A program made the position numbers and the translations under genes. A stretch of 64,000 nt of DNA from Blastococcus sp. DSM 46786 (GTDB lineage Bacteria; Actinomycetota; Actinomycetes; Mycobacteriales; Geodermatophilaceae). The stretch is taken from positions 1 through 64,000 of the forward strand of contig NZ_FOAO01000021.1 in the NCBI RefSeq assembly GCF_900109665.1, in the 5' to 3' direction. How positions within the stretch are numbered: the stretch's first letter is position 1; every line of letters starts with the position of its first letter. Shown in pieces: positions 1 through 39,700 of this stretch. The notes under the pieces were generated by a model. It saw nothing but the letters and a program-made list of their open reading frames with translations, was not told where the DNA came from and did not search any database.

Positions 1-3000
1 GTCGGGTCGACGTAGTTGATGGGGTTGCTGGCGGCGTATTCGTAGCGGTTGGCGCGGGTGGGGTCGGCAAGTGTTTCGAGACTGTCGGGCTGGGTGAAGC
101 GGCCGGTGGCCGGGTCGTACCAGCGCTGCCCGAAGTGGACGAGGGTGCTGTTGGGGTCGTCGATGCCGCCGGCGTAGCCGTAGGGGTTGAAGCGGGTGAC
201 CTCGGCGGCGTTTTGCCCGGGAGTGGTGACGCCCCAAGGGTCGTAGCTGTAGGTGCCGGTGGTGGCCCCGTTCTGGTTGGTCAGGTGGGTGACCGAGCCC
301 AGGCCGTCCTGGGTGTAGTAGTGAACCTGGCCGTCGGGAGTGCGCAGGGCGATGGGGGTGCCCTGGGGGTCGTGGACGAGGAAGGCGGTGTTGTCCAGGG
401 TGTTCAGCCCCACGGTGTGGGCCTTGACCAGCGGGATGCCGTTGGCGTCGGTGCGGCCGTAGGCGTAGACGTTGTTCAGCCCGCCGGCCCGGGTCTCGCG
501 GATGAGCTCGGTCTGGTCGGTGCCGGCGTACTCGTAGGCGCTGGTGGTGGTGCTGGTGGCCAGGCGGGTCATCTGGCCGTCGGCCTTGTAGACCGCCGAG
601 CCCAGTCCGACGATCCCCGTCTGATTGCCGGCGGAGTCGTAGCTGTTGCCGGTGCCGGTGAGCTGGTCGGCGGCGTTGACCGTCTGGGTCTGGACGACCG
701 CGCCGTTCTTGGTGGTCTGGGTGCGGTTGCCGTTGGCGTCGTAGCTGTAGGTCCAGCTGTCCCCGCCGGGGGTGGTGGCCGAGGTGAGCCGGTTGGCGGT
801 GTCGTAGCAGTAGCTGGTCACCAGGCCGGTGAGGTGGTCGGTCTGCTGGTGGCGCAGGGCGGTGTCGGTGCCGGCCGCCGGGCCGCTAGGGCAGGCGCCG
901 GCGCCGAGGGCGGCGTAGGAGTAGGACAGGTCAGATACCCGGTTCGCGTCGTCGCTGCTCTGTCCGGTGGTGATCCGGGTGATCCGCCCGGCGCTGTCGT
1001 AGCTGGTGCGGGTGTGCGCGGCCCAGGAGGTGTGGGCAGTGTCGGTGTCGTTCCAGGTGTCCACGCGGCGGCCGTTGCTGTCGTAGCCGAAGTCGGTGGC
1101 CGACCCGTCAGGCAGCGTCATCCGCGTGACCAGGTTGCGGGTGTCGTAGCTGTAGCTGGTGGTGCCACCGGGGTCGACCTCGGTGGCCAGATTGCCCACC
1201 TTGTCGTAGCCGTAGTCGACGGTGATGTGCCGCTGGATGGAGTGCACCCGGGAGGTGAGCCGGCCCAGCGGGTCGTAGCCGTAGGTGGTGGTGCCGGAGT
1301 TGTCCTGCCGGGAGGTCTGGTGACCGCGGGTGTCGTAGCGGTAGTAGATGGTGCTGCTGCCGGCGGAGAAGTTGATCTGAGTGGTCCGGTCCCCGGCGTC
1401 GTACCGGTAGGTCTGGGTGATCCCGTTGCCGTTGGTGAAGGTGGCCAGCCGGCCGAACCCGTCGTAGGTGTAGTTCCGCTGGGCCAGGCTGCTGTCGGCC
1501 GGTGGGGTGATGGCGGTGAGCTGCTTGTCGGAGTTGTAGGTGTAGCTGGTGACCGCACCGGAGGGGCTGGTGGAGTCCTTGACCGTGCCGTCGGCGTTGT
1601 AGGTCACCGAGGCGCTGCTGCTGGCGGCGTCGGTGGCCGACAGGCCGTTGCCGGCGCCGTCGTAGGTGAACAGGCTCTGGTTGCCCTGGGCGTCGGTGGC
1701 ACTGGCCGGGAGGTACTGCGCGGCCCCGGTGTTGCCGTAGGTGAACGCCGAGGCGGCGCCGGTGGCGGCCTGCACCCCGGTGAGGGACTCCCCGCCGTTG
1801 GCGTCGTAGCTGGCGGTGGTGGTGGCCCCGGCGGCGTCGGTGGCCGAGGCGACGTCCAGGAACGGCGTGTACGTGGTCGACCGCTGGTGCCCGGCCGGGT
1901 CCGTGACCGAGGCGATGAGCTTCATGCCGTCGCCGGTGAGCTCATACGTGCTGTGCGGGACCGTGGTCACCGCCTGGCCCTGGTCGGTGTTGGCGTCGGC
2001 GAGGTAGGTGTGTGCGTCGTCGTAGCCGAACCGAGTGACCGCGCCGGAGGCGCTGGTGCCGGTCGGCTGATCGACCGAGAGCACCCGGCCCAGATCGTCG
2101 TAGCCGAAGCGGGTGACCACGTTGCCCGGGGCGGTGATCGAGGCCAGCCGGCCCGCGGCGTCGTAGCCCAGCTGGCTGGCCCGGCCCAGCGCGTCGGTGA
2201 CGGTCTGCAGGCGGCCGGCGGCGTCGTAGTCGTAGGCCACCGAGCGGTTGCTCAGGTTGGAGGAGGCGGCCGGGGTCTGGGTGAGCTCGGTGATCTGCTT
2301 GGAGCCGCCACCGGCGGTGCCCACCTGCAGCGTCCGGGCGGCGGCCGGCCCCTGGTCGCTCACCACCTCGGTCAGCGCCAACCCGCTGTAGGCGAAGGTG
2401 GTCTGGTTGCCGTTGCGGTCGGTCAGCGTGGTCAGCTGACCCGCGGTGTTGAAGGCGCGGACGTCGCGGGAGGCGTGGTCGGTCAGCGACCAGCCACCGG
2501 CCGCGTCGCCGGTCAGGTCCATCTTGAACCCGGCCGGAGCGGTGTAGGCGGTGCCGCCGGCGGGCTGGAACACTCCGGTCAGCCCGTTGGGCCCGTAGTA
2601 GGTGATGATGCCGCTGGTGGCTTCCCGGCTCAGGTAGACATCCGAACCGGTGGACAGCCGCCAGCCGGAGCTGAGCGAGGTCTGGAAGCCGTCCCCGCCC
2701 CGCCACTGGCTCAGGCTGTTGTAGACCGCGCCCACGGAGAGGTCACCGGCCACGCGCGGCAGGGTCAGACCGGGCAGGGAGATCATCAGGTTGCCGCTGC
2801 CGGTGTCGACCCTGGCCTGGGCGGTGTCGCTGATCGTGAACGGCACCGTAGAGGCACCCGGCCGCGGCCCGGCACCCAGGCTGCCGGCCACCTGCCCGGT
2901 CTCGACGGCCGAGGAGGTGCAGCCGGTGGTGTCGCACAGCTCAGCCCGGTACTCGAACGTCTCCTGGATGCTGAGCTCACCGGCCGGGACCTGCGCGGTA

Positions 3001-3305
3001 CCGGTGGAGCCACTGACGGTCGTGCCGTCAAGCAGGTTCCACGTCGAGGAGCCGACGGTACGCGCATAGAACTTCAGCGACTGCCCCGACACCCCCGCCG
3101 GCGCGCTGGCCTTGAGCACCGGCTGCAGCGTCGCGGAGACGACCTGGTCCACCTCCGGGCCGCTGGACGGCGCGGCCAGCACCCCGGTGACCTGGCCCAT
3201 CACCACCGCGGCCGCCACCGTGCCGACCGTAGCCATCTGGGAGGCGCGCCGGCGCCCCCGCCTTCTGAACGCTGACGTGCTCGACGACTGACTGAGCATG
3301 GACAT
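1..3305 (-). CDS. Secreted RHS/YD-repeat protein, C-terminus beyond the window
   Basis: The minus-strand frame is open from an ATG at 3305 (ribosome site GGTGAGG five bases before it) to the window edge, giving at least 1,101 codons. Residues 1-45 form a signal peptide: an arginine-rich start, a hydrophobic stretch and an A-x-A-like end near VLAAP. After about 250 residues of non-repeat sequence come many YD repeats of the type YGYD..GRL. Near the edge lies the RHS core: HFGQRWYDPATGRF, then ANRYEYAASNPINYVDP. In RHS proteins the core precedes a variable toxin or effector tip, so the tip and any immunity gene should lie just outside the window. Most likely a polymorphic-toxin delivery protein or a secreted wall-associated RHS protein; the activity cannot be read here. 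Confidence 0.9.
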   Translation of the reverse strand, partial: MSMLSQSSSTSAFRRRGRRRASQMATVGTVAAAVVMGQVTGVLAAPSSGPEVDQVVSATLQPVLKASAPAGVSGQSLKFYARTVGSSTWNLLDGTTVSGSTGTAQVPAGELSIQETFEYRAELCDTTGCTSSAVETGQVAGSLGAGPRPGASTVPFTISDTAQARVDTGSGNLMISLPGLTLPRVAGDLSVGAVYNSLSQWRGGDGFQTSLSSGWRLSTGSDVYLSREATSGIITYYGPNGLTGVFQPAGGTAYTAPAGFKMDLTGDAAGGWSLTDHASRDVRAFNTAGQLTTLTDRNGNQTTFAYSGLALTEVVSDQGPAAARTLQVGTAGGGSKQITELTQTPAASSNLSNRSVAYDYDAAGRLQTVTDALGRASQLGYDAAGRLASITAPGNVVTRFGYDDLGRVLSVDQPTGTSASGAVTRFGYDDAHTYLADANTDQGQAVTTVPHSTYELTGDGMKLIASVTDPAGHQRSTTYTPFLDVASATDAAGATTTASYDANGGESLTGVQAATGAASAFTYGNTGAAQYLPASATDAQGNQSLFTYDGAGNGLSATDAASSSASVTYNADGTVKDSTSPSGAVTSYTYNSDKQLTAITPPADSSLAQRNYTYDGFGRLATFTNGNGITQTYRYDAGDRTTQINFSAGSSTIYYRYDTRGHQTSRQDNSGTTTYGYDPLGRLTSRVHSIQRHITVDYGYDKVGNLATEVDPGGTTSYSYDTRNLVTRMTLPDGSATDFGYDSNGRRVDTWNDTDTAHTSWAAHTRTSYDSAGRITRITTGQSSDDANRVSDLSYSYAALGAGACPSGPAAGTDTALRHQQTDHLTGLVTSYCYDTANRLTSATTPGGDSWTYSYDANGNRTQTTKNGAVVQTQTVNAADQLTGTGNSYDSAGNQTGIVGLGSAVYKADGQMTRLATSTTTSAYEYAGTDQTELIRETRAGGLNNVYAYGRTDANGIPLVKAHTVGLNTLDNTAFLVHDPQGTPIALRTPDGQVHYYTQDGLGSVTHLTNQNGATTGTYSYDPWGVTTPGQNAAEVTRFNPYGYAGGIDDPNSTLVHFGQRWYDPATGRFTQPDSLETLADPTRANRYEYAASNPINYVDP

Positions 3306-3372
3306 GCAGACCTCACCGGGACGCAGGGCAGATGGACGGTGAGCGCCCCTGGCTGGCGGCGCTCAAGGTCAA

Positions 3373-3401
3373 CCTTGCGGTGGCGCTATGCGACCGCAAG
3401 G
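3373..3401. other. 9-bp inverted repeat upstream of the RHS gene
   Basis: CCTTGCGGT at 3373-3381 and ACCGCAAGG at 3393-3401 are perfect complements separated by 11 bases. The element lies about 70 bases before the RHS start codon, in the 393-base gap between that gene and rpmB. It could be an operator or a 5' leader hairpin. Apart from this and the terminator at 3592-3622, I see nothing gene-like in the gap. Confidence 0.4.
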
Positions 3402-3591
3402 CTCCGCTGCGTTACCGATCGGGTGAACTCCTGGTTCCCCGGTGACACTCTGTTCAGGTCTGTGGCGAGCCGCTGACCTGCTTGGACCCGCCTCGGCCGC
3501 GAGGCGTGCGGACGGCTGGGCCGTAGCTCGGGTCTGCCGGGCGCCCGTGGGCGGCGCGAGGGCGGCGGATCGGGTGATGAGCGCACGCGAG

Positions 3592-3622
3592 GAGCCCCGG
3601 AGGTCGGTGACCTCCGGGGCTC
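3592..3622 (-). terminator. Terminator hairpin downstream of rpmB
   Basis: A perfect 13-bp stem (GAGCCCCGGAGGT at 3592-3604 pairs with 3610-3622) closes a 5-base loop. It starts about 77 bases past the rpmB stop, in the direction rpmB is read. There is no T-tract, which is usual for high-G+C actinobacterial hairpin terminators. Confidence 0.65.
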
Positions 3623-3698
3623 CCGGTGACGTGGTGGAACGGTCCCCGTCAGGGCCCCGACCCGAGCGTGCGAGGGGTGGGGGGACGGGGGTCCTTCT

Positions 3699-3890
3699 TC
3701 AGGCGCGGACGACCTTGCCGGCGCGGATGCACGAGGTGCACGCGTTGATCCGGCGACGGTTGCCGGGGGCGATCAGCGCCCGCACGGACTGGATGTTCGG
3801 GTTCCAACGGCGCGGCGTGCGGCGGTGCGAGTGCGACACCGACATACCGAAACCGGGGCCCTTGCCACACACATCGCACACGGCAGCCAC
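3699..3890 (-). CDS. rpmB: 50S ribosomal protein L28
   Basis: The 63-residue product matches the L28 family over its full length. It carries the cysteine pairs of the zinc-binding (C+) form: CDVC at residues 5-8 and CTSC near residue 53. The core reads GMSVSHSHRRTPRRWNPN. L28 is a protein of the large ribosomal subunit. GGGAG lies upstream of the ATG. The gene is divergent from the DAK-domain gene and transcribed toward the RHS gene. The order rpmB-DAK-recG is conserved in Actinobacteria, so the call is firm. Confidence 0.95.
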   Translation of the reverse strand: MAAVCDVCGKGPGFGMSVSHSHRRTPRRWNPNIQSVRALIAPGNRRRINACTSCIRAGKVVRA

Positions 3891-4050
3891 GGTGGATCAC
3901 TCCCAGAAGAATCGTTCACAGACGGCGGGGCAAGGCAGCACCCGCATCAAGACCGTCCAGCAGTCTAACCGCTCCGCGGACGTGATGTCGCAGCACCCTC
4001 CGGACCGGGGTTCGCGGCTCGCGCAGCGGGGTCCTGTCGGTGCCGGTGGG

Positions 4051-4056
4051 TAGCCT
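4051..4056 (+). promoter_or_regulatory. Probable -10 element of a leaderless DAK-gene mRNA
   Basis: TAGCCT fits the actinobacterial TANNNT -10 pattern and ends six bases before the GTG start codon at 4063. The transcript would then begin at or next to the start codon. No ribosome-binding site is present, which agrees with a leaderless mRNA. No convincing -35 is visible. Confidence 0.5.
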
Positions 4057-4062
4057 GCTCCC

Positions 4063-5661
4063 GTGCTGACGGCGCTGGACGACGCCGCGGTCGGTCAGTG
4101 GTGCCGCGCCGCGGTCGAGGCGCTGTCCGACTTCCGGGCGCGGCTGGACGACCTCAACGTCTTCCCGGTGCCGGACGGCGACACCGGCACCAACCTCCTG
4201 CACACCGCCGAGGGCGCGCTGGCGGCCCTGGACGAGGCGGCGCCCGGGGAGCCCGGCTGGGCGGTCGTCGCCCGGGGCGCGGTGCTGTCGGCCCGCGGCA
4301 ACTCCGGCACGATCCTGGCCCAGCTGCTGCGGGGCCTCGCCGATCAGCTGGCCGAGCAGCCCCCGGCCGACGGGCCGGTCCTCGCCTCCGCGCTGCGCAA
4401 GGCCGCCGAGAGCGCCTACACCGCCGTCGCCGATCCCGAGGAGGGCACCTTCCTCACCGTCGCCCGGGCCGCGGGGGAGGCCGCTGTGGCCGCCGTCGAC
4501 GAGGGGGAGACGGCGCTCGCCGACGTCGTCGGGGCCGCGGCCGACGGCGCGCATCGCGCCCTGGAGGGGACTCCCGACCAGCTCGCCGCGCTGCGCGAGG
4601 CCGGGGTGGTCGACGCGGGTGGCGCCGGGCTCTCCCTCGTCCTGGACGCCCTCGTCCGCACGGTCACCGGCGTGCAGCCGGTGCGCCCGGCCCTGGCCCG
4701 CCGCACGCACGGCCCGCACGACCACGTCCACACCCCGCACCAGCCGCCGCCCGGGCCGGGCAGCGAGGTGCAGTACCTGCTCGCCGACGCCGACGAGAGC
4801 TCGGTCGCCCGCCTCCACGAGCGGCTGGCCGGGCTCGGTGACAGCCTCGTCGTCGTCGGGGTGGACACGCCGACCGGCCGCGAGTGGAACGTCCACGTGC
4901 ACGTCTCCGACGTCGGCGCCGCCATCGAGGCGGGCATCGAGGCGGGCCGCCCGCACCGCATCACGGTCACCCCGCTGGCCCCGGTGCCCCCGGCGGCGCC
5001 GGTGCACGGCGTCCGGGCGGTCGTCGCGGCGGTGCACAGCGACGGGCTGGCCGAGCTCTTCCGCGCCGAGGGGTCCCGCGTCGTCGTCTGTGACCCCGGC
5101 GGGATCACCGAGGACGAGGTCTACGAGCAGATCGTCGCGGCCGCCGCCCAGGAGGTGGTGGTCCTTCCGAACGACGCCGGCCTGCACGCCGAGGCCTCCC
5201 GGGCGGCCGAGCGGGCGCGGGAGGCCGGCCGCGAGGTCGCCGTGGTGCCCACCCGCTCGCCGGTGCAGGGGCTGGCCGCGGTGGCCGTCGCCGATACGCA
5301 GCGGCGCTTCGGCGACGACGTCATCGCCATGGCCGAGGCCGCCGCCGCGACCCGGTGGGCCGAGCTCTCCGTCGCCGAGCAGGAGGCGCTCACCTCCGCG
5401 GGCCGCTGCCACCCCGGCGACGTGCTCGGCTCGGCCGAGGGCGACGTCGTGGTGATCGGCGCCGGGCTCGCCGCCGTCGCCTGCGACCTGCTCGACCGGC
5501 TGCTCTCCGCGGGCGGGGAGATGGCCACCCTGGTCGTCGGCCCCGACGAAGAGCTCGGCGACGCGGTCTGCGCCCACCTGTCGTCGGCGCACCCCACCGT
5601 CGAGGTGGTGCGCTACGGCGGCGGCCCCGGCTCGCTGCCCCTGCAGATCGGGGTCGAGTGA
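4063..5661 (+). CDS. DAK2-domain kinase, YloV/FakA-like
   Basis: The 532-residue protein has an N-terminal DhaL/DAK2 kinase domain. The metal- and nucleotide-binding motif PVPDGDTGTN lies near residues 35-44, followed by ARGNSGTILAQ and DAGGAG. The middle and C-terminal regions match the DegV-like part of YloV/FakA proteins. In Firmicutes, FakA phosphorylates fatty acids carried by a separate FakB protein; whether that holds here is an inference, and no fakB is in the window. The gene sits between rpmB and recG, its usual actinobacterial place, and its stop lies one base before the recG start. The GTG start probably lies at the 5' end of a leaderless transcript. Confidence 0.85.
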   Translation: MLTALDDAAVGQWCRAAVEALSDFRARLDDLNVFPVPDGDTGTNLLHTAEGALAALDEAAPGEPGWAVVARGAVLSARGNSGTILAQLLRGLADQLAEQPPADGPVLASALRKAAESAYTAVADPEEGTFLTVARAAGEAAVAAVDEGETALADVVGAAADGAHRALEGTPDQLAALREAGVVDAGGAGLSLVLDALVRTVTGVQPVRPALARRTHGPHDHVHTPHQPPPGPGSEVQYLLADADESSVARLHERLAGLGDSLVVVGVDTPTGREWNVHVHVSDVGAAIEAGIEAGRPHRITVTPLAPVPPAAPVHGVRAVVAAVHSDGLAELFRAEGSRVVVCDPGGITEDEVYEQIVAAAAQEVVVLPNDAGLHAEASRAAERAREAGREVAVVPTRSPVQGLAAVAVADTQRRFGDDVIAMAEAAAATRWAELSVAEQEALTSAGRCHPGDVLGSAEGDVVVIGAGLAAVACDLLDRLLSAGGEMATLVVGPDEELGDAVCAHLSSAHPTVEVVRYGGGPGSLPLQIGVE

Positions 5662-32512: not shown

Positions 32513-32763
32513 CCGCTTCGACCCGGGAAGGCGGCGTCCGGCCGACACCTCGATCGGTAGCCGGGGAGCCGCCGCCGTGCCCGACCGGATGGCCACCTGC
32601 CTGACCTGCGCCTACGAGGCACAGCGTGCTGATTGCCGGGATCACCAACCTACTGCGTAACGATCTCGTCACGTCGTGTCACATGCCGACCGATCGGCCG
32701 AGTTCGAGCCGTTGACCTGCGAGTTTGTGCGAGCTCATCGCTCGCAATGCCTCGGAGGTTTTC
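32513..32763. other. Upstream region of the RHS cassette
   Basis: This 251-base stretch lies before the large RHS gene. It is somewhat less G+C-rich toward the gene. The ribosome-binding site GGAGG at 32754-32758 is five bases before the GTG and decides that start. TTGACC at 32712-32717 could be a -35, but no good -10 follows at 16-18 bases. No RNA gene or other frame was seen. Confidence 0.5.
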
Positions 32764-35700
32764 GTGAGGGTCCGTCGTGCAGCTGCGCCCGTCGTTCCTC
32801 GGCGCAGTCGAGGGGTGATCGGTCTGCTCACGGCGGCGGTGCTCGGCTTCACGGTGGTGGACGGGGTGCCGGCGTACGCGGCGCCGCAGGTCGACACAGC
32901 GCTGCCGAGCAGTGCCTTCGAGGGCATCTCGGATGATCCCGTCCCGGTGCCGTCCGTGGCCGAGGCGCCTGCGCCTGCCCCGGCTGCCGGGGCGGTCGAG
33001 GAGCTTCCGCCCGCGCTTCCCGACCTGCCAGACGTGCCGGCCCTGCCGGAAGGGCGCTGGCACACGCGGGACCTGGACGAGCTCACGGCCGCACTGCGGC
33101 AGGCGGAGCGCACCGGAGAACCTGTGGAGCTGGTGTCGGAGACGACGGAGACCTCGATCAGCTTCGCTCAGCCGGACGGAACCGTGACCGTGCAGAGCGC
33201 CGCCGCGCCGGTCCGGACCAAGGTCGATGGCGTGTGGGTGGACGTCGACACGACCCTGGGGTTCACCGAGGACGGGGTACGACCGACCGCGGTGACGGGG
33301 GAGCTCACGTTCTCTGCCGGCGGTACGCAACCCATGGTCCGGCTCAGCGACGGCGAGTCCGCCACCCTCCGTCTCGACTGGGACGGTCGGCTGCCCGAGC
33401 CGGTCCTCCGTGGCAGCAGTGCCATCTACCGCGAGGTGCTGCCGCATGTCGACCTGGTCCTGACGGCGACCCGTCAGGGGTTCGAGCAGCACGTGGTGGT
33501 GCGGCAGCGGCCCGATGCAGAGACGTTCTCGGCGCTGCGCGAGCTGAAGTTCCCGATGGCTGCGAATGGCGCCGACGTGGTCGAGGGCGAAGGCGGTGAG
33601 CTCGTCCTCGAGGACGGCGGCAAGGTGCTCGGTACGGCGGCCGCTCCCGTCATGTGGGATGCGCGGACGAATGCCCAGAGTGACGAGCCGGCCGCGGTTC
33701 GCCCAGTCGGGCTCGAGCTCGCGGAAACCACCGAACGGGGGGTGGACGCCACGCTCGTCCTGGCTCCTGACGAAGCGTTTCTCCTGGCGCCCGACACGGT
33801 CTACCCCGTGACCATCGACCCGACGCAGGCGCTCGGCTTGCTCGGGGACACGTTCGTCCAGAGCAACATCGCGAACACGCCTCAGGGTGGGGCGACCGAA
33901 CTGCTGGTCGGCACCTACAACGGCGGCGGTCAGGTCAACCGATCACTGCTCGTGTTCGATGCCTCGCCGGCGTTCGAGCGGGTCGTCCAGTCGGCGACCT
34001 TGTCCCTGTGGGAGCACCACTCGTTCTCGTGCACACCACGCTGGGTCGACATCCGCAACGCGGGATGGTTCGACCCCGCCACCGTGACCTGGAACAGCCA
34101 GCCGTGGATCGACTGGCGGCCGGAGGGAATCCTCGCCAACGCGAACGTTGCCAGCGGATACAGCTCAGCGTGCCCGGACGCCTGGGTCAACTTCGACATG
34201 ACCGGGTGGGTGCAGCACTACGCCGACGCCCGCAACGAGACCGACTGGACGATGCCGCTGGCTGTGACGGCCGGCAGCGAGACCGACAGTGTCGGGTGGA
34301 AGAAGTTCCACTCCGGCAACGCCGGCGGCAACGTGCCCACGCTGACCTTCGCCTATGACGGAAACTGCGATCAGTACAACGGAGTCCTGGTGTGCGGTGC
34401 CATCCGGGACAAGTACTACTCATCCGGTGGCCCAGAAGGCCCCCTGGGGATGCCCGCGACCAGTCAGAACTGCGGTGCCCGCGATGGGGGGTGCTTCAAC
34501 CACTTCCAGGGCGGATCCGTCTACTGGTCAGCTGCCACGGGTGCGCACATGGTGGCCGGCGGCATCCGGGAGAAGTACGCGGCCATCGGCTGGGAGTACT
34601 CGGCTCTCGGTTATCCCACGACCGATCAGATCTGCGGCGGCCGTGACGGGGGGTGCTACAACCACTTCCAGGGCGGGTCCATCCTCTGGTCAGCAGCGAC
34701 CGGTGCCCGCGCAGTAACCGGTGGGATCTGGCAGAAGTACGCAGAGATAAAATTCGAGAACTCTGTGCTCGGCTACCCCACGACCGACCAGAACTGTGGC
34801 GCTCGGGATGGGGGGTGCTTCAACCACTTCCAGGGCGGGTCGATCTACTGGACGCCGGCTCACGGGGCGCATCCGGTCACCGGACCGATCCGAGCGACGT
34901 GGGCCGACATGGGTTACGAGTACGGCTGGCTGGGATTTCCGACCACCGACCCTGCGCAGGTGGCGGGCGGCACGCGGCAGCAGTTCGAGGGCGGCAACAT
35001 CGTCCGGGACGAGCGGTCGAACACCACGACCGTCGGCGCCGGTGCACTCACGCGCCCCACGCAGTTCCAGCGGGTCACCCAGGCGCGCACCGAGTTGCAG
35101 GCCACCGCGAAGATCCGACCCGGCGGAAGCTCCTATGACGGTGTGCGGTTCCAGTGGCGCTCGTACAGCCTCAACCCCTCGGATGGCTGGATCAACGTGG
35201 ATCCTGTGGCGTTGCGACTGCCCGAGGGCGGCGCCGTCGTCGGCACCTGGTTGCCGGTCACGGATCAGGACGGCGGCAAGGTGTCGGCCCGCTACCAGTG
35301 GCATGCCACCTCGAGCATTTCGGTCGATGGGCTGATGCAGGTGCGCGCCTGCTTCCGGCTGACCGGCACCACCGACGAGCGCTGTACAGGCGTCACCCAG
35401 ATCACCGTCGACCGGGCCGGCCTCACCGGCGCGAACGCCACCTCCGACGTGGGCCCGGGAACCGTCGGCCTGCTGACCGGCGCCTACGCGGTCGTGGGCC
35501 GCGATGTCGAGGTCAGCGCCCCGCACGGGGGGCTGGCTGCCACCCGCAGTTTCGCCAGCAACGACCCGAACCGGGCCGGGCCCCTGGGCCCGGGTTGGCG
35601 GATGTCGCTCGCCGTCGATGAGGCAGGTGCCGACTACCTGAGCCTCGTCGACCGCACCGAGACGGTGCTCATCACCCGCGGCGACGGCACCCAGCTGCCC

Positions 35701-38700
35701 TTCGTCCGGAAGTCGTCGAGCGCTGCTGACGTGAACACCTACGTCGCCGAGGGGGAGGCCAGCACCGAGGGTGCGACCCTCACCTTCGTCCCCGGGGCGA
35801 CGGGGACGGCGAGCAGCTACGTGCTCACCGACCTGGACGGGGACAAGGTCACCTTCACCCGTGCGGACGGCGGGCACGGGCATCGCGACGGCGGCCTGTT
35901 CCGGGTGACCAAGGTGGAGGCCATCCGCGGCAAGGCGGGCAGTACCGACCTCGCTCCCGCCCTGACCACCGTCGCCTACACGGCCGCGGGCAACCCGCGG
36001 CTGCTGCTGGCGCCGACCGACGCCGGGGCAGCCTGCCCGGACCCCACCATCACCGCACAGCCGGCCGGCTGCCGAGCGCTCGAGTTCGTCTACACCGGCA
36101 CGGGAGGCGCCGAGCGGCTGCAGGAGGTGCGGCTGTGGGCGCACGGCGCGGCGGCCGCAGCTGGTGAGCTGGTCACCGGGAGCACCCCCGTCGCGGCGCG
36201 GATGATCACCATGGCGCGCTACGGCTACGACAGCGACGGGTGGCTCGCGTCGGTCACCGACCCCCGCAGCGGCCAGCAGGTGACCTACACCTACCGGACC
36301 GACGGGCGGCTGGAGACGATCACGCCGGTCGGTGGCACGGCGACCTGGACGCTGGGGTACGACGACCGGCAGCTGCCCCGCCTGGTGTCGGCCACGCTGG
36401 ATGAGGGACCCGACGGCCTGGCTTCCCAGCGCACCAGCGTGCGCTACGGCCTGCCGCTGGACGGCAGCAACAGCGCCCTGCCGACGCTCACCGCAGCGGA
36501 GGTGAAGCGCTGGGGCCAGGCGGCTGCGCCCACCGACATGACCGCCATCTTCGGGCCGGACGTGGTGCCCGACAGTGCACCGACCGCGGCGCAGTGGCGT
36601 GGCGCCCAGCTGTTGGCGCTGGACGTCAACGGCCGGGTCACCAACACGGCCAACTTCGGCGGGACCATCGATCAGGACACCGGGGCGGACGAGGCGCCGG
36701 CCTGGCGGATCGCCACCACGGAATACGACGCCGAGGGCCGGGGGAACGTCGTCCGGGAGCTGTCTGCGGGCAACCGTGACCGCGCCCTCGCCGCCGGTGC
36801 CGACGCAGCCGCTGAGGCGACCCAGGCCAAGCTGCTGGACACCGTCAACAGCTACTCCGCCGACGGACTGGACCTGCTGCGCAGCTACCAGCCCGCCCGC
36901 CCGGTCACCGTCGCCGCCGGTGACCGTCAGGTCAGCGCCCGCACGCGGACCACCACCGTCTACGACACGGGTCAGGAGGCCGGGCACCCCACCCCCGGGG
37001 CGACCCGCCACCTGCCTGTCCGCACCACCGTGGAGGCGGTGGAGATCCACGTCGGGTTGCCGGCGGGCTCCACCGGCACCGACCCGGCGCTGCCGGCGCT
37101 GGACGGCCGCAGCCGTGTGACGGTGCTGGAGTACGGCACGCCGAACGCGTGGAAGTTCGGCACGCCGACGGCTACCCGGGTCGACCCCGGTGGCGGCGCG
37201 GCTGAGGTGGTGACCCGGCAGGTGCTCGACGAGCAGGGGCGCACCATCTCCAGCACGCTGCCTGCCGGTGGCACCGGCACCACCACCGCGGCGACGACGG
37301 TCAAGGTCTACTACTCGGCCAACAGCACCGAGCCGGGTTGCGCCAGGGCGGAATGGGCCGGCTGGCTGTGCAAGAGCCGCTCCGGCGGCGCACCGGACGC
37401 CGGGTTCGCGCTGCCCACCACGCACGTGACCGGTTACGACGTGTACGGCAACGTCACGCGGGTGGTGGAGACCGGTGCTGGCGTCACCGGGACCGCGGAT
37501 ACCGCGTACGACGCGGTGGGTCGTGCCCGGCGCAGTGGCATGACCGGTACCGGGACGGAGGTGGGCCAGCTTCGGCCGCAGGTGGAGACCACCTACACCG
37601 ATGCCGGTCTGGTCGACGAGACCCGCCTGGTCGGTGCGGACGGGGCGGTGGTCGGGAGTGCGGCGGAGGGCACCGGTGCGATCGGGCGGGCGTATGACGG
37701 CTATGGCCGGTTGGTGTCCTACACCGATGGCAGTGGGCTGGTCACGACGCAGTCCTATGACTCGGTGGGCCGGTTGGTGCAGGTGGCCAACGAGCACGGC
37801 ACCCGCACCATCGGCTACGACGGCGGCGGTGAGCGGGGGAGCCTGCCGACCAGCCTGACCATCTCTGGTGTCGGTGAGTTCACCGCCCGGTACGGAACCG
37901 ACGGGAGCCTGGTGCGGGAGGAGCTCCCGGGCGGGTTGAGTGCGACGACGGTGCGCGATGCCGCCGGGGACGCGGTGCGCCTGACGTACGTGAAGACCGC
38001 CGCCGATGGCAGCACGAGTGAGTGGTTGAAGTCGGCGGCGTCGATCAACGGCTTCGACCAGGTCGACATGTATCAGACGTCGGCGGTGACGGGGCTGCCC
38101 CGGACCAACCGGTACGGCTACGACGACTTGGGCCGGCTGGTCTCGGCGACGGACTGGGCGGCGCTGCAGGCCGGCGGTCTGCCGACGGGGCCCTCGTGCA
38201 CGCGCTCGTACACGTTCGACGTCAACAGCAACCGCACCGGACTGGTCCAGGCGGCGACGGCGGGGGCGCCGGGCGGCACCTGCCCGGCCACCGTGGCGGC
38301 GTCGGCCTCCTACGGCTACGACAGCGCGGATCGGCTGAAGGTCGACGGCACGCGGAGCTCGTTGCGGTATGACGCGCTGGGCCGCACCCGGGTGCTGCCG
38401 TCGGTGGACACCGTCGACGGCGGCGGGGACGTGGCGATCGACTACTACGTCGATGACCTGGTGGCGGGCATGGCCCAGGGCGGGCGGACGACGGCGTTCG
38501 ATCTGGACGCCGCGGCGCGACGGGTGGTGCGCACCGACACCGACACCGCCGCCCCGGGCGCGCGCCGCACGACCAGCCTCTACAGCGGCGACGACGACAA
38601 CCCCGACGTGGTGCGGGAGCCGGACAACAGCTACACCCGCAACATCGCTTCCTTCGGTGGGCTGGCCGCGGTGGTGACCAAGAACGGCACCGCCGGGGCG

Positions 38701-39408
38701 GAGGTCGTCTTCCAGCTGGCCAACCTGCACGGCGACATCGCCGCCACCGTGCCCGCCGGCGCGGAGACGCCGGTGGATCTGCGGGTGACCGAGACCACCG
38801 AGTACGGCCTGCCGTGGGCCAAGCCCGCCGCCGGCACCACCCAGAACCGCTACGGCTGGCTGGGTACCCACCAACGCGACGCCAGCGCCATCGGCGGGCT
38901 CACCTTGATGGGCGTCCGGCTCTACGCACCCGCCCTCGGCCGCTTCCTCACCGTCGATCCCATTGAGGGCGGCAGCGCGAACGCATACGAGTACTCCGTT
39001 GGCGATCCGATCAACAAGGTTGACCTCGACGGTCGAGCTGTTTGGTTCCTCGTCGCGGCCATAGTGATCCGTGTGGGCGGCCATCTCGCAGCGCGACAGG
39101 CCGCCCGTACAGCGACTCAACGAGCAGCCGCACAGTTCGCTACCCGTTCAGAAACAATGCGGCGTGCGGCAACTACGCCGCGACAACGCAGCATCAACAG
39201 CTTGGACAGCAGAGTATACGAGCACACACTGAAGCTTCGAGACTATAGGGCAAACCCCGGACGTTACGATAATCGTGGGCACCTGTCTCGTGCGGGTAAC
39301 AACGAGGCCAGGCGCCAGGCGATCGTCTCCACTCGCGCCAACCACATCCGGGGCGAGATGCGGGAATGGCGTAGGCAAATCTATCAGCGGCGCGGAGGCT
39401 ACAACTAA
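32764..39408 (+). CDS. Giant secreted RHS protein with LGFP repeats and a C-terminal toxin-like tip
   Basis: The 2,214-residue protein starts at GTG 32764, set by GGAGG five bases upstream. Order of parts: signal peptide (residues 1-39, ending AYA); a beta-rich region (about 90-340); a DNRLRE-type domain (about 356-533: DTFVQSN, SATLSLWEHH, VTWNSQP); four LGFP repeats (about 546-758), three with a cysteine pair; YD-repeat/RHS shell (about 905-2070); RHS core (RYGWLGTHQRD, GRFLTVDP, DPINKVDLDG, ending near 2089). Then comes a hydrophobic segment (AVWFLVAAIVIRVGG) and a basic tip of about 105 residues (YEHTLKLRDYRANPGRYDN, RANHIRGEMREWRRQ) that resembles the Ntox28-type RNase toxins from memory. 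A small probable immunity gene follows. G+C falls to about half in the tip. Toxin activity is inferred. Confidence 0.88.
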   Translation: MRVRRAAAPVVPRRSRGVIGLLTAAVLGFTVVDGVPAYAAPQVDTALPSSAFEGISDDPVPVPSVAEAPAPAPAAGAVEELPPALPDLPDVPALPEGRWHTRDLDELTAALRQAERTGEPVELVSETTETSISFAQPDGTVTVQSAAAPVRTKVDGVWVDVDTTLGFTEDGVRPTAVTGELTFSAGGTQPMVRLSDGESATLRLDWDGRLPEPVLRGSSAIYREVLPHVDLVLTATRQGFEQHVVVRQRPDAETFSALRELKFPMAANGADVVEGEGGELVLEDGGKVLGTAAAPVMWDARTNAQSDEPAAVRPVGLELAETTERGVDATLVLAPDEAFLLAPDTVYPVTIDPTQALGLLGDTFVQSNIANTPQGGATELLVGTYNGGGQVNRSLLVFDASPAFERVVQSATLSLWEHHSFSCTPRWVDIRNAGWFDPATVTWNSQPWIDWRPEGILANANVASGYSSACPDAWVNFDMTGWVQHYADARNETDWTMPLAVTAGSETDSVGWKKFHSGNAGGNVPTLTFAYDGNCDQYNGVLVCGAIRDKYYSSGGPEGPLGMPATSQNCGARDGGCFNHFQGGSVYWSAATGAHMVAGGIREKYAAIGWEYSALGYPTTDQICGGRDGGCYNHFQGGSILWSAATGARAVTGGIWQKYAEIKFENSVLGYPTTDQNCGARDGGCFNHFQGGSIYWTPAHGAHPVTGPIRATWADMGYEYGWLGFPTTDPAQVAGGTRQQFEGGNIVRDERSNTTTVGAGALTRPTQFQRVTQARTELQATAKIRPGGSSYDGVRFQWRSYSLNPSDGWINVDPVALRLPEGGAVVGTWLPVTDQDGGKVSARYQWHATSSISVDGLMQVRACFRLTGTTDERCTGVTQITVDRAGLTGANATSDVGPGTVGLLTGAYAVVGRDVEVSAPHGGLAATRSFASNDPNRAGPLGPGWRMSLAVDEAGADYLSLVDRTETVLITRGDGTQLPFVRKSSSAADVNTYVAEGEASTEGATLTFVPGATGTASSYVLTDLDGDKVTFTRADGGHGHRDGGLFRVTKVEAIRGKAGSTDLAPALTTVAYTAAGNPRLLLAPTDAGAACPDPTITAQPAGCRALEFVYTGTGGAERLQEVRLWAHGAAAAAGELVTGSTPVAARMITMARYGYDSDGWLASVTDPRSGQQVTYTYRTDGRLETITPVGGTATWTLGYDDRQLPRLVSATLDEGPDGLASQRTSVRYGLPLDGSNSALPTLTAAEVKRWGQAAAPTDMTAIFGPDVVPDSAPTAAQWRGAQLLALDVNGRVTNTANFGGTIDQDTGADEAPAWRIATTEYDAEGRGNVVRELSAGNRDRALAAGADAAAEATQAKLLDTVNSYSADGLDLLRSYQPARPVTVAAGDRQVSARTRTTTVYDTGQEAGHPTPGATRHLPVRTTVEAVEIHVGLPAGSTGTDPALPALDGRSRVTVLEYGTPNAWKFGTPTATRVDPGGGAAEVVTRQVLDEQGRTISSTLPAGGTGTTTAATTVKVYYSANSTEPGCARAEWAGWLCKSRSGGAPDAGFALPTTHVTGYDVYGNVTRVVETGAGVTGTADTAYDAVGRARRSGMTGTGTEVGQLRPQVETTYTDAGLVDETRLVGADGAVVGSAAEGTGAIGRAYDGYGRLVSYTDGSGLVTTQSYDSVGRLVQVANEHGTRTIGYDGGGERGSLPTSLTISGVGEFTARYGTDGSLVREELPGGLSATTVRDAAGDAVRLTYVKTAADGSTSEWLKSAASINGFDQVDMYQTSAVTGLPRTNRYGYDDLGRLVSATDWAALQAGGLPTGPSCTRSYTFDVNSNRTGLVQAATAGAPGGTCPATVAASASYGYDSADRLKVDGTRSSLRYDALGRTRVLPSVDTVDGGGDVAIDYYVDDLVAGMAQGGRTTAFDLDAAARRVVRTDTDTAAPGARRTTSLYSGDDDNPDVVREPDNSYTRNIASFGGLAAVVTKNGTAGAEVVFQLANLHGDIAATVPAGAETPVDLRVTETTEYGLPWAKPAAGTTQNRYGWLGTHQRDASAIGGLTLMGVRLYAPALGRFLTVDPIEGGSANAYEYSVGDPINKVDLDGRAVWFLVAAIVIRVGGHLAARQAARTATQRAAAQFATRSETMRRAATTPRQRSINSLDSRVYEHTLKLRDYRANPGRYDNRGHLSRAGNNEARRQAIVSTRANHIRGEMREWRRQIYQRRGGYN
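34465..34950 (+). repeat. Tandem LGFP repeats, 162-bp period
   Basis: Equivalent points (the codons of Q-N/I-C) occur at 34465, 34627 and 34789, exactly 162 bases (54 residues) apart; a fourth, degenerate unit follows. Each of the first three reads LGMP/LGYP...C-x6-C-F/Y-NHFQGGS-(V/I)-(Y/L)-W. The fourth lacks the cysteine segment and has LGFPTTD...QFEGGN. LGFP repeats bind cell-wall polymers in other Actinobacteria. Confidence 0.9.
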
Positions 39409-39409
39409 A

Positions 39410-39700
39410 ATGACCACTATCTCGATGCGCGTACTTGAAGAGGCTCTCGCTCTTGTGGCTGAGCATGTTCGCCAAACCGTGGGGGACAGTGTCTACATCG
39501 AGCATGACTACTTTTGGTCCGTCCCGGCGGACGAGCTTTACAACATTGACCAACCGCCCGGCGACCTGACTTTGGGGCAACTGAGCGAGTGTCTTCAGCA
39601 AATCGAATCCCTGGTCAACGAGCCCGACGACGTAATCGCGTATCACATGGTGTGGCTTGGTGAACTGCTGAAGGCCGTAGGCCACAAAGTTGTCGGCTAG
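39410..39700 (+). CDS. Probable immunity protein for the RHS toxin
   Basis: ATG 39410 lies one base after the RHS stop and gives 96 residues. A frame from 39275 exists, but it overlaps the toxin codons and its extra residues are not protein-like. The protein is acidic (EHDYFWSVP, ELYNIDQPPGDLTLGQLSE, EPDDVIAYHMVWLGELL), opposite in charge to the basic toxin tip. The DYxW-x-P and LT-x-GQLS pattern resembles small CDI/RHS immunity-type proteins from memory. Base composition is as low in G+C as the toxin tip and unlike all neighbours, pointing to joint acquisition. Role inferred from position, size and charge. Confidence 0.72.
   Translation: MTTISMRVLEEALALVAEHVRQTVGDSVYIEHDYFWSVPADELYNIDQPPGDLTLGQLSECLQQIESLVNEPDDVIAYHMVWLGELLKAVGHKVVG

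What the first reader, a model, noticed from the sequence alone, without database searches (positions are those of the whole stretch)
32764..39700. Giant LGFP-bearing RHS protein with a toxin-like tip and linked immunity gene
Seen: one 2,214-codon gene with signal peptide, DNRLRE-type region, four LGFP repeats, YD-repeat shell, RHS core, membrane segment, and a short basic tip, followed one base later by an acidic 96-residue frame. Known: RHS shells encapsulate C-terminal toxins, and an adjacent small gene usually gives immunity. LGFP repeats anchor proteins to cell-wall glycan in mycolic-acid Actinobacteria. Inference: a wall-tethered or wall-targeting contact toxin of a Gram-positive, possibly without any type VI system. 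The combination of LGFP with an RHS toxin is unusual to me.
Basis: partly seen in the sequence, partly recalled or inferred. Interest (0 to 1): 0.8.

Follow-up and report, generated by a model that had tools for sequence, protein, structure and literature searches.

The report
Wall-anchored Rhs toxin with LGFP repeats
An actinobacterium carries a giant secreted protein that probably holds itself to cell walls and bears a small poison domain at its tip, with the antidote gene next door; it is built like the known WapA toxins of Gram-positive bacteria but with a different wall-binding module and a poison/antidote pair that the family libraries searched here do not contain.

Summary
The gene (GTG 32764 to 39408, 2,214 aa) reads signal peptide, DNRLRE/CBM96, four LGFP repeats, Rhs shell, Rhs core, 124-residue tip. 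A 96-aa acidic gene starts one base after its stop codon. The toxin/immunity reading is well supported. (1) The tip has relatives in several phyla, and all ten are followed directly by a homologue of the 96-aa gene. (2) In seven related genomes the carrier is conserved, then each copy switches at the end of the Rhs core to an unrelated tip plus its own next gene. (3) Tips and next genes have foreign base composition. The architecture matches WapA (Sec signal, DNRLRE, wall module, Rhs, toxin). What differs is the wall module: none of 24 other DNRLRE-Rhs or Rhs carriers examined has LGFP; Streptomyces types have Ig-like sequence there and Streptococcus suis WapA has LysM. LGFP-Rhs was found only in one bacterial family. 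Tip and partner match no Pfam, NCBIfam (tip) or PDB entry, and Ntox28 was tested and rejected. The genome lacks the T6SS sheath gene and Pks13, so a mycolic-acid wall is unlikely to be the LGFP target. The toxin's chemistry is unknown.

The parts
32764..32880 (+). Sec signal peptide, residues 1-39 (MRVRR...GVIGLLTAAVLGFTVVDGVPAYA|AP)
   Evidence: Sequence reading: basic n-region, hydrophobic core (KD 2.46 over 15), AYA|AP cleavage site; GGAGG 5 bases before GTG. No signal-peptide program was available.
33847..34350 (+). DNRLRE / CBM96 domain
   Evidence: NF033679 75.2 bits; PF24517 37.6 bits
34444..35046 (+). Four tandem LGFP repeats (putative wall-binding module); the variant feature
   Evidence: PF08310, 79.4/76.7/89.5/27.2 bits; phmmer to Protein PS1 chains 6swz/6sx4, E 1.6e-30
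35464..38811 (+). DUF6531 plus YD/RHS-repeat shell
   Evidence: PF20148 24.3 bits, PF05593 38 bits, three stretches; weak phmmer to Tse15 Rhs structures
38812..39033 (+). Rhs-associated core, with two Asp motifs DPIEG ... DLDG(R) 17 residues apart (Asp 2065 and Asp 2087)
   Evidence: TIGR03696 54 bits; spacing as described for Rhs1 (PMC8636562)
39034..39144 (+). Hydrophobic pretoxin segment at the start of the tip (long helix in the model)
   Evidence: KD 1.88 over 19 residues; helix 2-46 in AF2 model; similar segment, by reading, before a different toxin in L071
39172..39405 (+). Toxin domain, about 78 residues; helical hairpin around a P-x3-DN-x-G-x-L loop; no named family
   Evidence: Relatives; AF2 pLDDT 89; no credible Pfam, NCBIfam or PDB match
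39410..39700 (+). Immunity gene, 96 aa, acidic, no membrane segment; invariant D33, W36, Y44, G56
   Evidence: Homologue directly downstream of every tip relative; AF2 pLDDT 89; no Pfam/PDB match

Best explanation
It is a WapA-type Rhs polymorphic toxin with a cognate immunity gene. The protein leaves the cell through Sec. Its DNRLRE and LGFP modules hold it on cell-wall glycan, most likely the producer's own. The YD/RHS shell encloses the tip, and the Rhs core cuts itself after its second Asp motif to free it. On contact the tip, helped by its hydrophobic lead segment, enters a neighbour and acts in the cytoplasm, probably on nucleic acid. Siblings are protected by the soluble 96-aa protein. 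Shown: the architecture, the conservation of the carrier, the replacement of tips exactly at the core, the foreign composition of the tip cassette, and the strict pairing of tip and partner. Inferred: secretion, wall binding, cleavage, delivery, cytoplasmic target and enzymatic activity. The toxin chemistry is a guess (nuclease about 0.4). The confidence given is for the toxin/immunity and WapA-type reading as a whole, not for each inferred step.
For: Carrier blocks are 47-81% identical in four full-length relatives from residue 61 to 2090, then 9-30% and 12-21% in the tip. Seven relatives carry tips unrelated to the window's and to each other, each with its own next gene. One of those tips resembles Ntox35 (21.8 bits, just under the 23.6 cut-off), listed as a predicted BECR-fold toxin (PMC3482391). 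One tip is shared with a non-LGFP carrier in another family (L081/L131, 54%, E 1e-46). Tip and partner GC3 0.63-0.69 against carrier windows with mean 0.89, minimum 0.795; a drop at the tip in all seven relatives. Ten of ten tip relatives have a partner homologue directly downstream. Partners all acidic. Same order of modules as S. suis WapA (PMC12704120). Rhs cleavage motifs with the published 17-residue spacing. No T6SS sheath gene.
Against: No experiment. The tip has no recognised toxin fold or active site, and Foldseek found nothing. Two relatives of the tip are broken copies (L037, L031). The second Asp motif is DLDGR instead of the usual DPxGL. The hydrophobic segment is only moderately hydrophobic. 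LGFP binding has not been shown for a wall without mycolates.
Confidence: 0.85

Rival explanations
1. The LGFP repeats aim at the neighbour's wall, or at shed wall glycan, and the protein is released as a soluble bacteriocin-like toxin rather than held on the producer.
For: LGFP repeats also occur in papers on phage lysins that act on a target wall (list). No sortase motif or membrane anchor is seen in the carrier. Wall polymers are shared by kin, so the same module could bind both partners.
Against: The closest characterised system (S. suis WapA) was found in the producer's wall fraction. The same genome uses LGFP arrays on other proteins that are probably its own surface proteins.
Confidence: 0.25
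2. The tip kills by disturbing the membrane (hydrophobic lead helix plus helical hairpin) rather than by an enzyme in the cytoplasm.
For: Tip is all helix with a hydrophobic segment. Three of the relatives' tips have next genes with clear membrane segments, so membrane-acting tips may exist on this carrier.
Against: The partner of this tip is soluble with no membrane segment (KD maximum 0.81). The hydrophobic segment is not part of the domain shared with relatives, while Asp, Asn, Arg, His, Tyr and Glu are conserved in it.
Confidence: 0.15
3. A domesticated or decayed Rhs surface protein, used for adhesion, whose tip is no longer toxic.
For: The tip diverges from the family consensus (26-39% identity to the others; DNQG reads DNRG and the PDA motif reads PGR). 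Rhs tips often decay.
Against: Both frames are intact, the invariant residues of tip and partner are kept, and the cassette is recent by composition.
Confidence: 0.08
4. The tip is an Ntox28 toxin.
For: Ntox28 is also described as all-alpha (PMC3482391).
Against: PF15605 finds nothing in this genome though it finds a true member elsewhere in the class; profile comparison with that member gives probability 0.5%; hmmscan reports no Ntox28 for the window tip.
Confidence: 0.01

Closest known systems
WapA / wall-associated Rhs toxins of Gram-positives (Bacillus subtilis WapA; Streptococcus suis WapA-CT1, PMC12704120)
   Same: Sec signal, DNRLRE domain, wall-binding module, YD/Rhs shell with core, variable C-terminal toxin, immunity gene next door
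   Different: LGFP repeats in place of LysM (S. suis); found in an actinobacterial family; no cognate sortase or SecF-like gene was identified here (not searched for specifically)
DNRLRE-Rhs proteins of Streptomyces, Tessaracoccus and other actinobacteria
   Same: About 29-41% identity over the DNRLRE part (roughly residues 90-532) and the Rhs part (roughly 738-2091), same overall length and order
   Different: Ig/FN3-like sequence (by reading, in the four aligned) where this protein has LGFP; 0 of 24 examined carry LGFP
Protein PS1 and other LGFP proteins of Corynebacterium
   Same: LGFP repeats, E 1.6e-30
   Different: PS1 is a mycolyltransferase with LGFP in a mycolate wall (own knowledge); this genome lacks Pks13 and the LGFP is fused to an Rhs toxin
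T6SS Rhs effectors (Rhs1, Tse5, TseI)
   Same: Rhs shell and core with two Asp motifs 17 residues apart, C-terminal toxin, immunity
   Different: Sec signal and wall-binding N-terminus instead of a T6SS-loading one; no T6SS sheath gene in the genome

Membership tests
WapA-type Rhs polymorphic toxin | N-terminal Sec signal and wall-binding region in place of a T6SS N-terminus | tested here: met
   Signal by reading; DNRLRE and LGFP by profile; no TssB in genome
WapA-type Rhs polymorphic toxin | YD/Rhs shell closed by the Rhs-associated core | tested here: met
   PF05593, TIGR03696 above cut-off
WapA-type Rhs polymorphic toxin | Hypervariable C-terminus switching at the core in related carriers | tested here: met
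   Eight unrelated tips on one conserved carrier, counting the window's
WapA-type Rhs polymorphic toxin | Cognate immunity gene directly downstream | tested here: met
   Partner homologue follows all ten tip relatives; protection itself not tested
WapA-type Rhs polymorphic toxin | Contact-dependent killing of cells lacking immunity | not testable with these tools
   Needs competition assay
WapA-type Rhs polymorphic toxin | Rhs aspartyl autocleavage motifs | tested here: inconclusive
   DPIEG and DLDGR, 17 residues apart; both Asp kept in relatives L071-L075 and L077, but the second motif is not the canonical DPxGL; cleavage itself not tested
LGFP proteins | LGFP repeats above the Pfam cut-off | tested here: met
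   Four repeats, total 234 bits
LGFP as anchor to mycolate walls | Host makes mycolic acids (Pks13) | tested here: not met
   NF040607 96 bits against cut-off 2100; 1 of 14 control genomes passes
Ntox28 | Match to PF15605 | tested here: not met
T6SS Rhs effector | T6SS in the genome | tested here: not met
   PF05591 absent, E. coli control positive

The most novel reading that the evidence does not exclude
An actinobacterial lineage has rebuilt the WapA weapon with LGFP repeats as its wall grip, in a wall without mycolic acids, and this copy carries a minimal (about 78-residue) helical-hairpin toxin of an undescribed biochemical class, found with its own immunity family from Actinobacteria to Planctomycetes, Gemmatimonadetes, Chloroflexi, Acidobacteria, Myxococcota and Enterobacteriaceae.
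Probability: 0.45. Interest if true: 0.65.

Novelty: new variant of a known kind. Interest (0 to 1): 0.5.

Why it matters
Rhs toxins of Gram-positives other than Firmicutes are little studied. Here one conserved carrier shows the wall-binding cassette to be exchangeable, as the toxin tip is: LGFP here, Ig-like in Streptomyces, LysM in Streptococcus. That gives a direct way to ask whether the wall module sets where the weapon sits and whom it reaches. It would also give LGFP repeats a role outside mycolate walls, and adds a toxin/immunity pair, spread over many phyla, that Pfam and PDB (and, for the tip, NCBIfam) do not hold.

Tried and rejected
Ntox28 for the tip. Fold matches for tip and immunity: nothing at E<=0.001. 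PDB sequence matches for both: none credible. Close-relative scan with the tip alone found nothing; the profile scan found nine loci. The weak tip hits and most of those look like Ala/Arg-rich or wrong-frame artefacts and were dropped. Many low-score Pfam coiled-coil hits of tip relatives reflect composition, not family. The phage collection has no tip relative. A fused tip-immunity fold was considered but not run: only the window row could be given that way, so a result would have meant little. One order-level search failed on the machine and was repeated with a shorter query.

Full report
Observation. The frame 32725-39408 on the + strand is real. The likely start is GTG 32764, five bases after GGAGG, which gives 2,214 residues. 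Profiles find a DNRLRE/CBM96 domain, four LGFP repeats, DUF6531, RHS repeats and the Rhs-associated core, all above their cut-offs, DUF6531 only just. The last 124 residues match nothing named. The partner gene 39410-39700 begins one base after the stop codon.

The tip and its partner are a pair. Searches with the tip found relatives in Protofrankia, Amycolatopsis, Agromyces, Phytoactinopolyspora, a Planctomycetaceae MAG, a Gemmatimonadetes MAG, Candidatus Roseilinea, an Acidobacteria MAG and Archangium, and in an orphan stretch of a Cronobacter condimenti plasmid. In all ten, a homologue of the 96-aa protein lies directly downstream of the tip. Carriers differ: by eye two (L032, L033) look like T7SS-type proteins, L036 begins its tip after a DPYGL motif as Rhs tips do, and others are orphan-like. 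Such a pairing across phyla on different carriers is what a toxin/immunity cassette gives. Two copies are broken (L037, L031), as is usual for orphan cassettes.

The carrier is polymorphic. In the same bacterial family the carrier occurs in at least seven other genomes. In the four full-length copies it is 47-81% identical to the window from residue 61 to 2090, then falls to 9-30% and 12-21%. Each of seven relatives has another tip and another next gene. One tip resembles Ntox35. Three have next genes with clear membrane segments, while the partner here is soluble. One tip (L081) recurs at 54% identity on a non-LGFP carrier of another family (L131). Tips are poorer in G+C than their carriers in every case.

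The LGFP array is the variant part. Pfam confirms three to five LGFP repeats in four full-length relatives. Twenty Rhs carriers fetched from the order-level search have none; about sixteen of them share both the DNRLRE and the Rhs parts at roughly 29-41% identity. Three plasmid carriers (two Streptomyces, one Tessaracoccus) and G124 likewise align over residues about 90-532 and 738-2091 but have, judged by reading, Ig/FN3-like sequence where LGFP stands. In S. suis WapA the slot after DNRLRE holds LysM (PMC12704120). So the wall module appears to be exchanged as a unit. The sampled evidence says LGFP-Rhs is confined to this family, with the limit that only part of the order and class was searched.

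Secretion and wall. The signal peptide is plain in sequence. The T6SS sheath gene is absent. The Pks13 model is far below cut-off, so the host very likely makes no mycolic acids and LGFP must hold to something else. I guess from its relatives and content that the host is a Geodermatophilaceae-like actinobacterium, but no tool named it.

Mechanism. The Rhs core carries two Asp motifs 17 residues apart (DPIEG, DLDGR; Asp 2065 and Asp 2087), the spacing reported for the aspartyl autocleavage of Rhs1 (PMC8636562). The model of the tip is a long helix followed by a helical hairpin around P-DN-G (pLDDT 89). The model of the partner is a small alpha/beta protein (pLDDT 89). Neither resembles a solved structure. 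A soluble acidic partner points to a cytoplasmic target. The charge of the tip suggests nucleic acid, weakly, since relatives range from net 0 to +4.

Verdict. A WapA-type Rhs toxin with a lineage-specific LGFP wall module and a toxin/immunity family absent from the libraries searched. The kind is known; the wall module and the tip are new variants. Function is inferred, not shown.

Noticed in passing
window 1-3362 (-), continuing on contig C42 of the same genome: A second, different Rhs protein with a signal-peptide-like start, no LGFP, canonical DPTGL and a hydrophobic tip of about 60 residues; the two contig ends overlap by 483 identical bases, so the gene was probably split by assembly.
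   Followed up: partly
L078 (G063:C5), 262-4584: The same DNRLRE-LGFP N-terminus is followed by RTX-like repeats (by reading) instead of Rhs, and its tip and next gene resemble those of an Rhs carrier (L075): 34% and 27% identity, E 5e-6 and 3e-15. The LGFP front end may serve more than one delivery body.
   Followed up: partly
L031 (Cronobacter condimenti plasmid pCCO1), 2600-9800: A run of small genes including a MafI-type immunity gene, with a broken orphan copy of this tip and its partner.
   Followed up: partly
G000:C23:231230-233056 (L096), C23:254123-255357 (L097), C33:30857-31462 (L098): Other LGFP proteins of this genome: a 12-repeat array of about 917 aa, a metallopeptidase-like protein with LGFP, and a DUF3152 protein with LGFP, all in a host without Pks13.
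   Followed up: partly
L072 downstream of 7104: A remnant Rhs core plus tip behind the intact gene, the usual sign of displaced C-terminal cassettes.
   Followed up: no
L147, L148, L149: Other Rhs proteins of the same family carry HINT/intein-like sequence before the tip instead of a plain Rhs core end, judged by reading.
   Followed up: no
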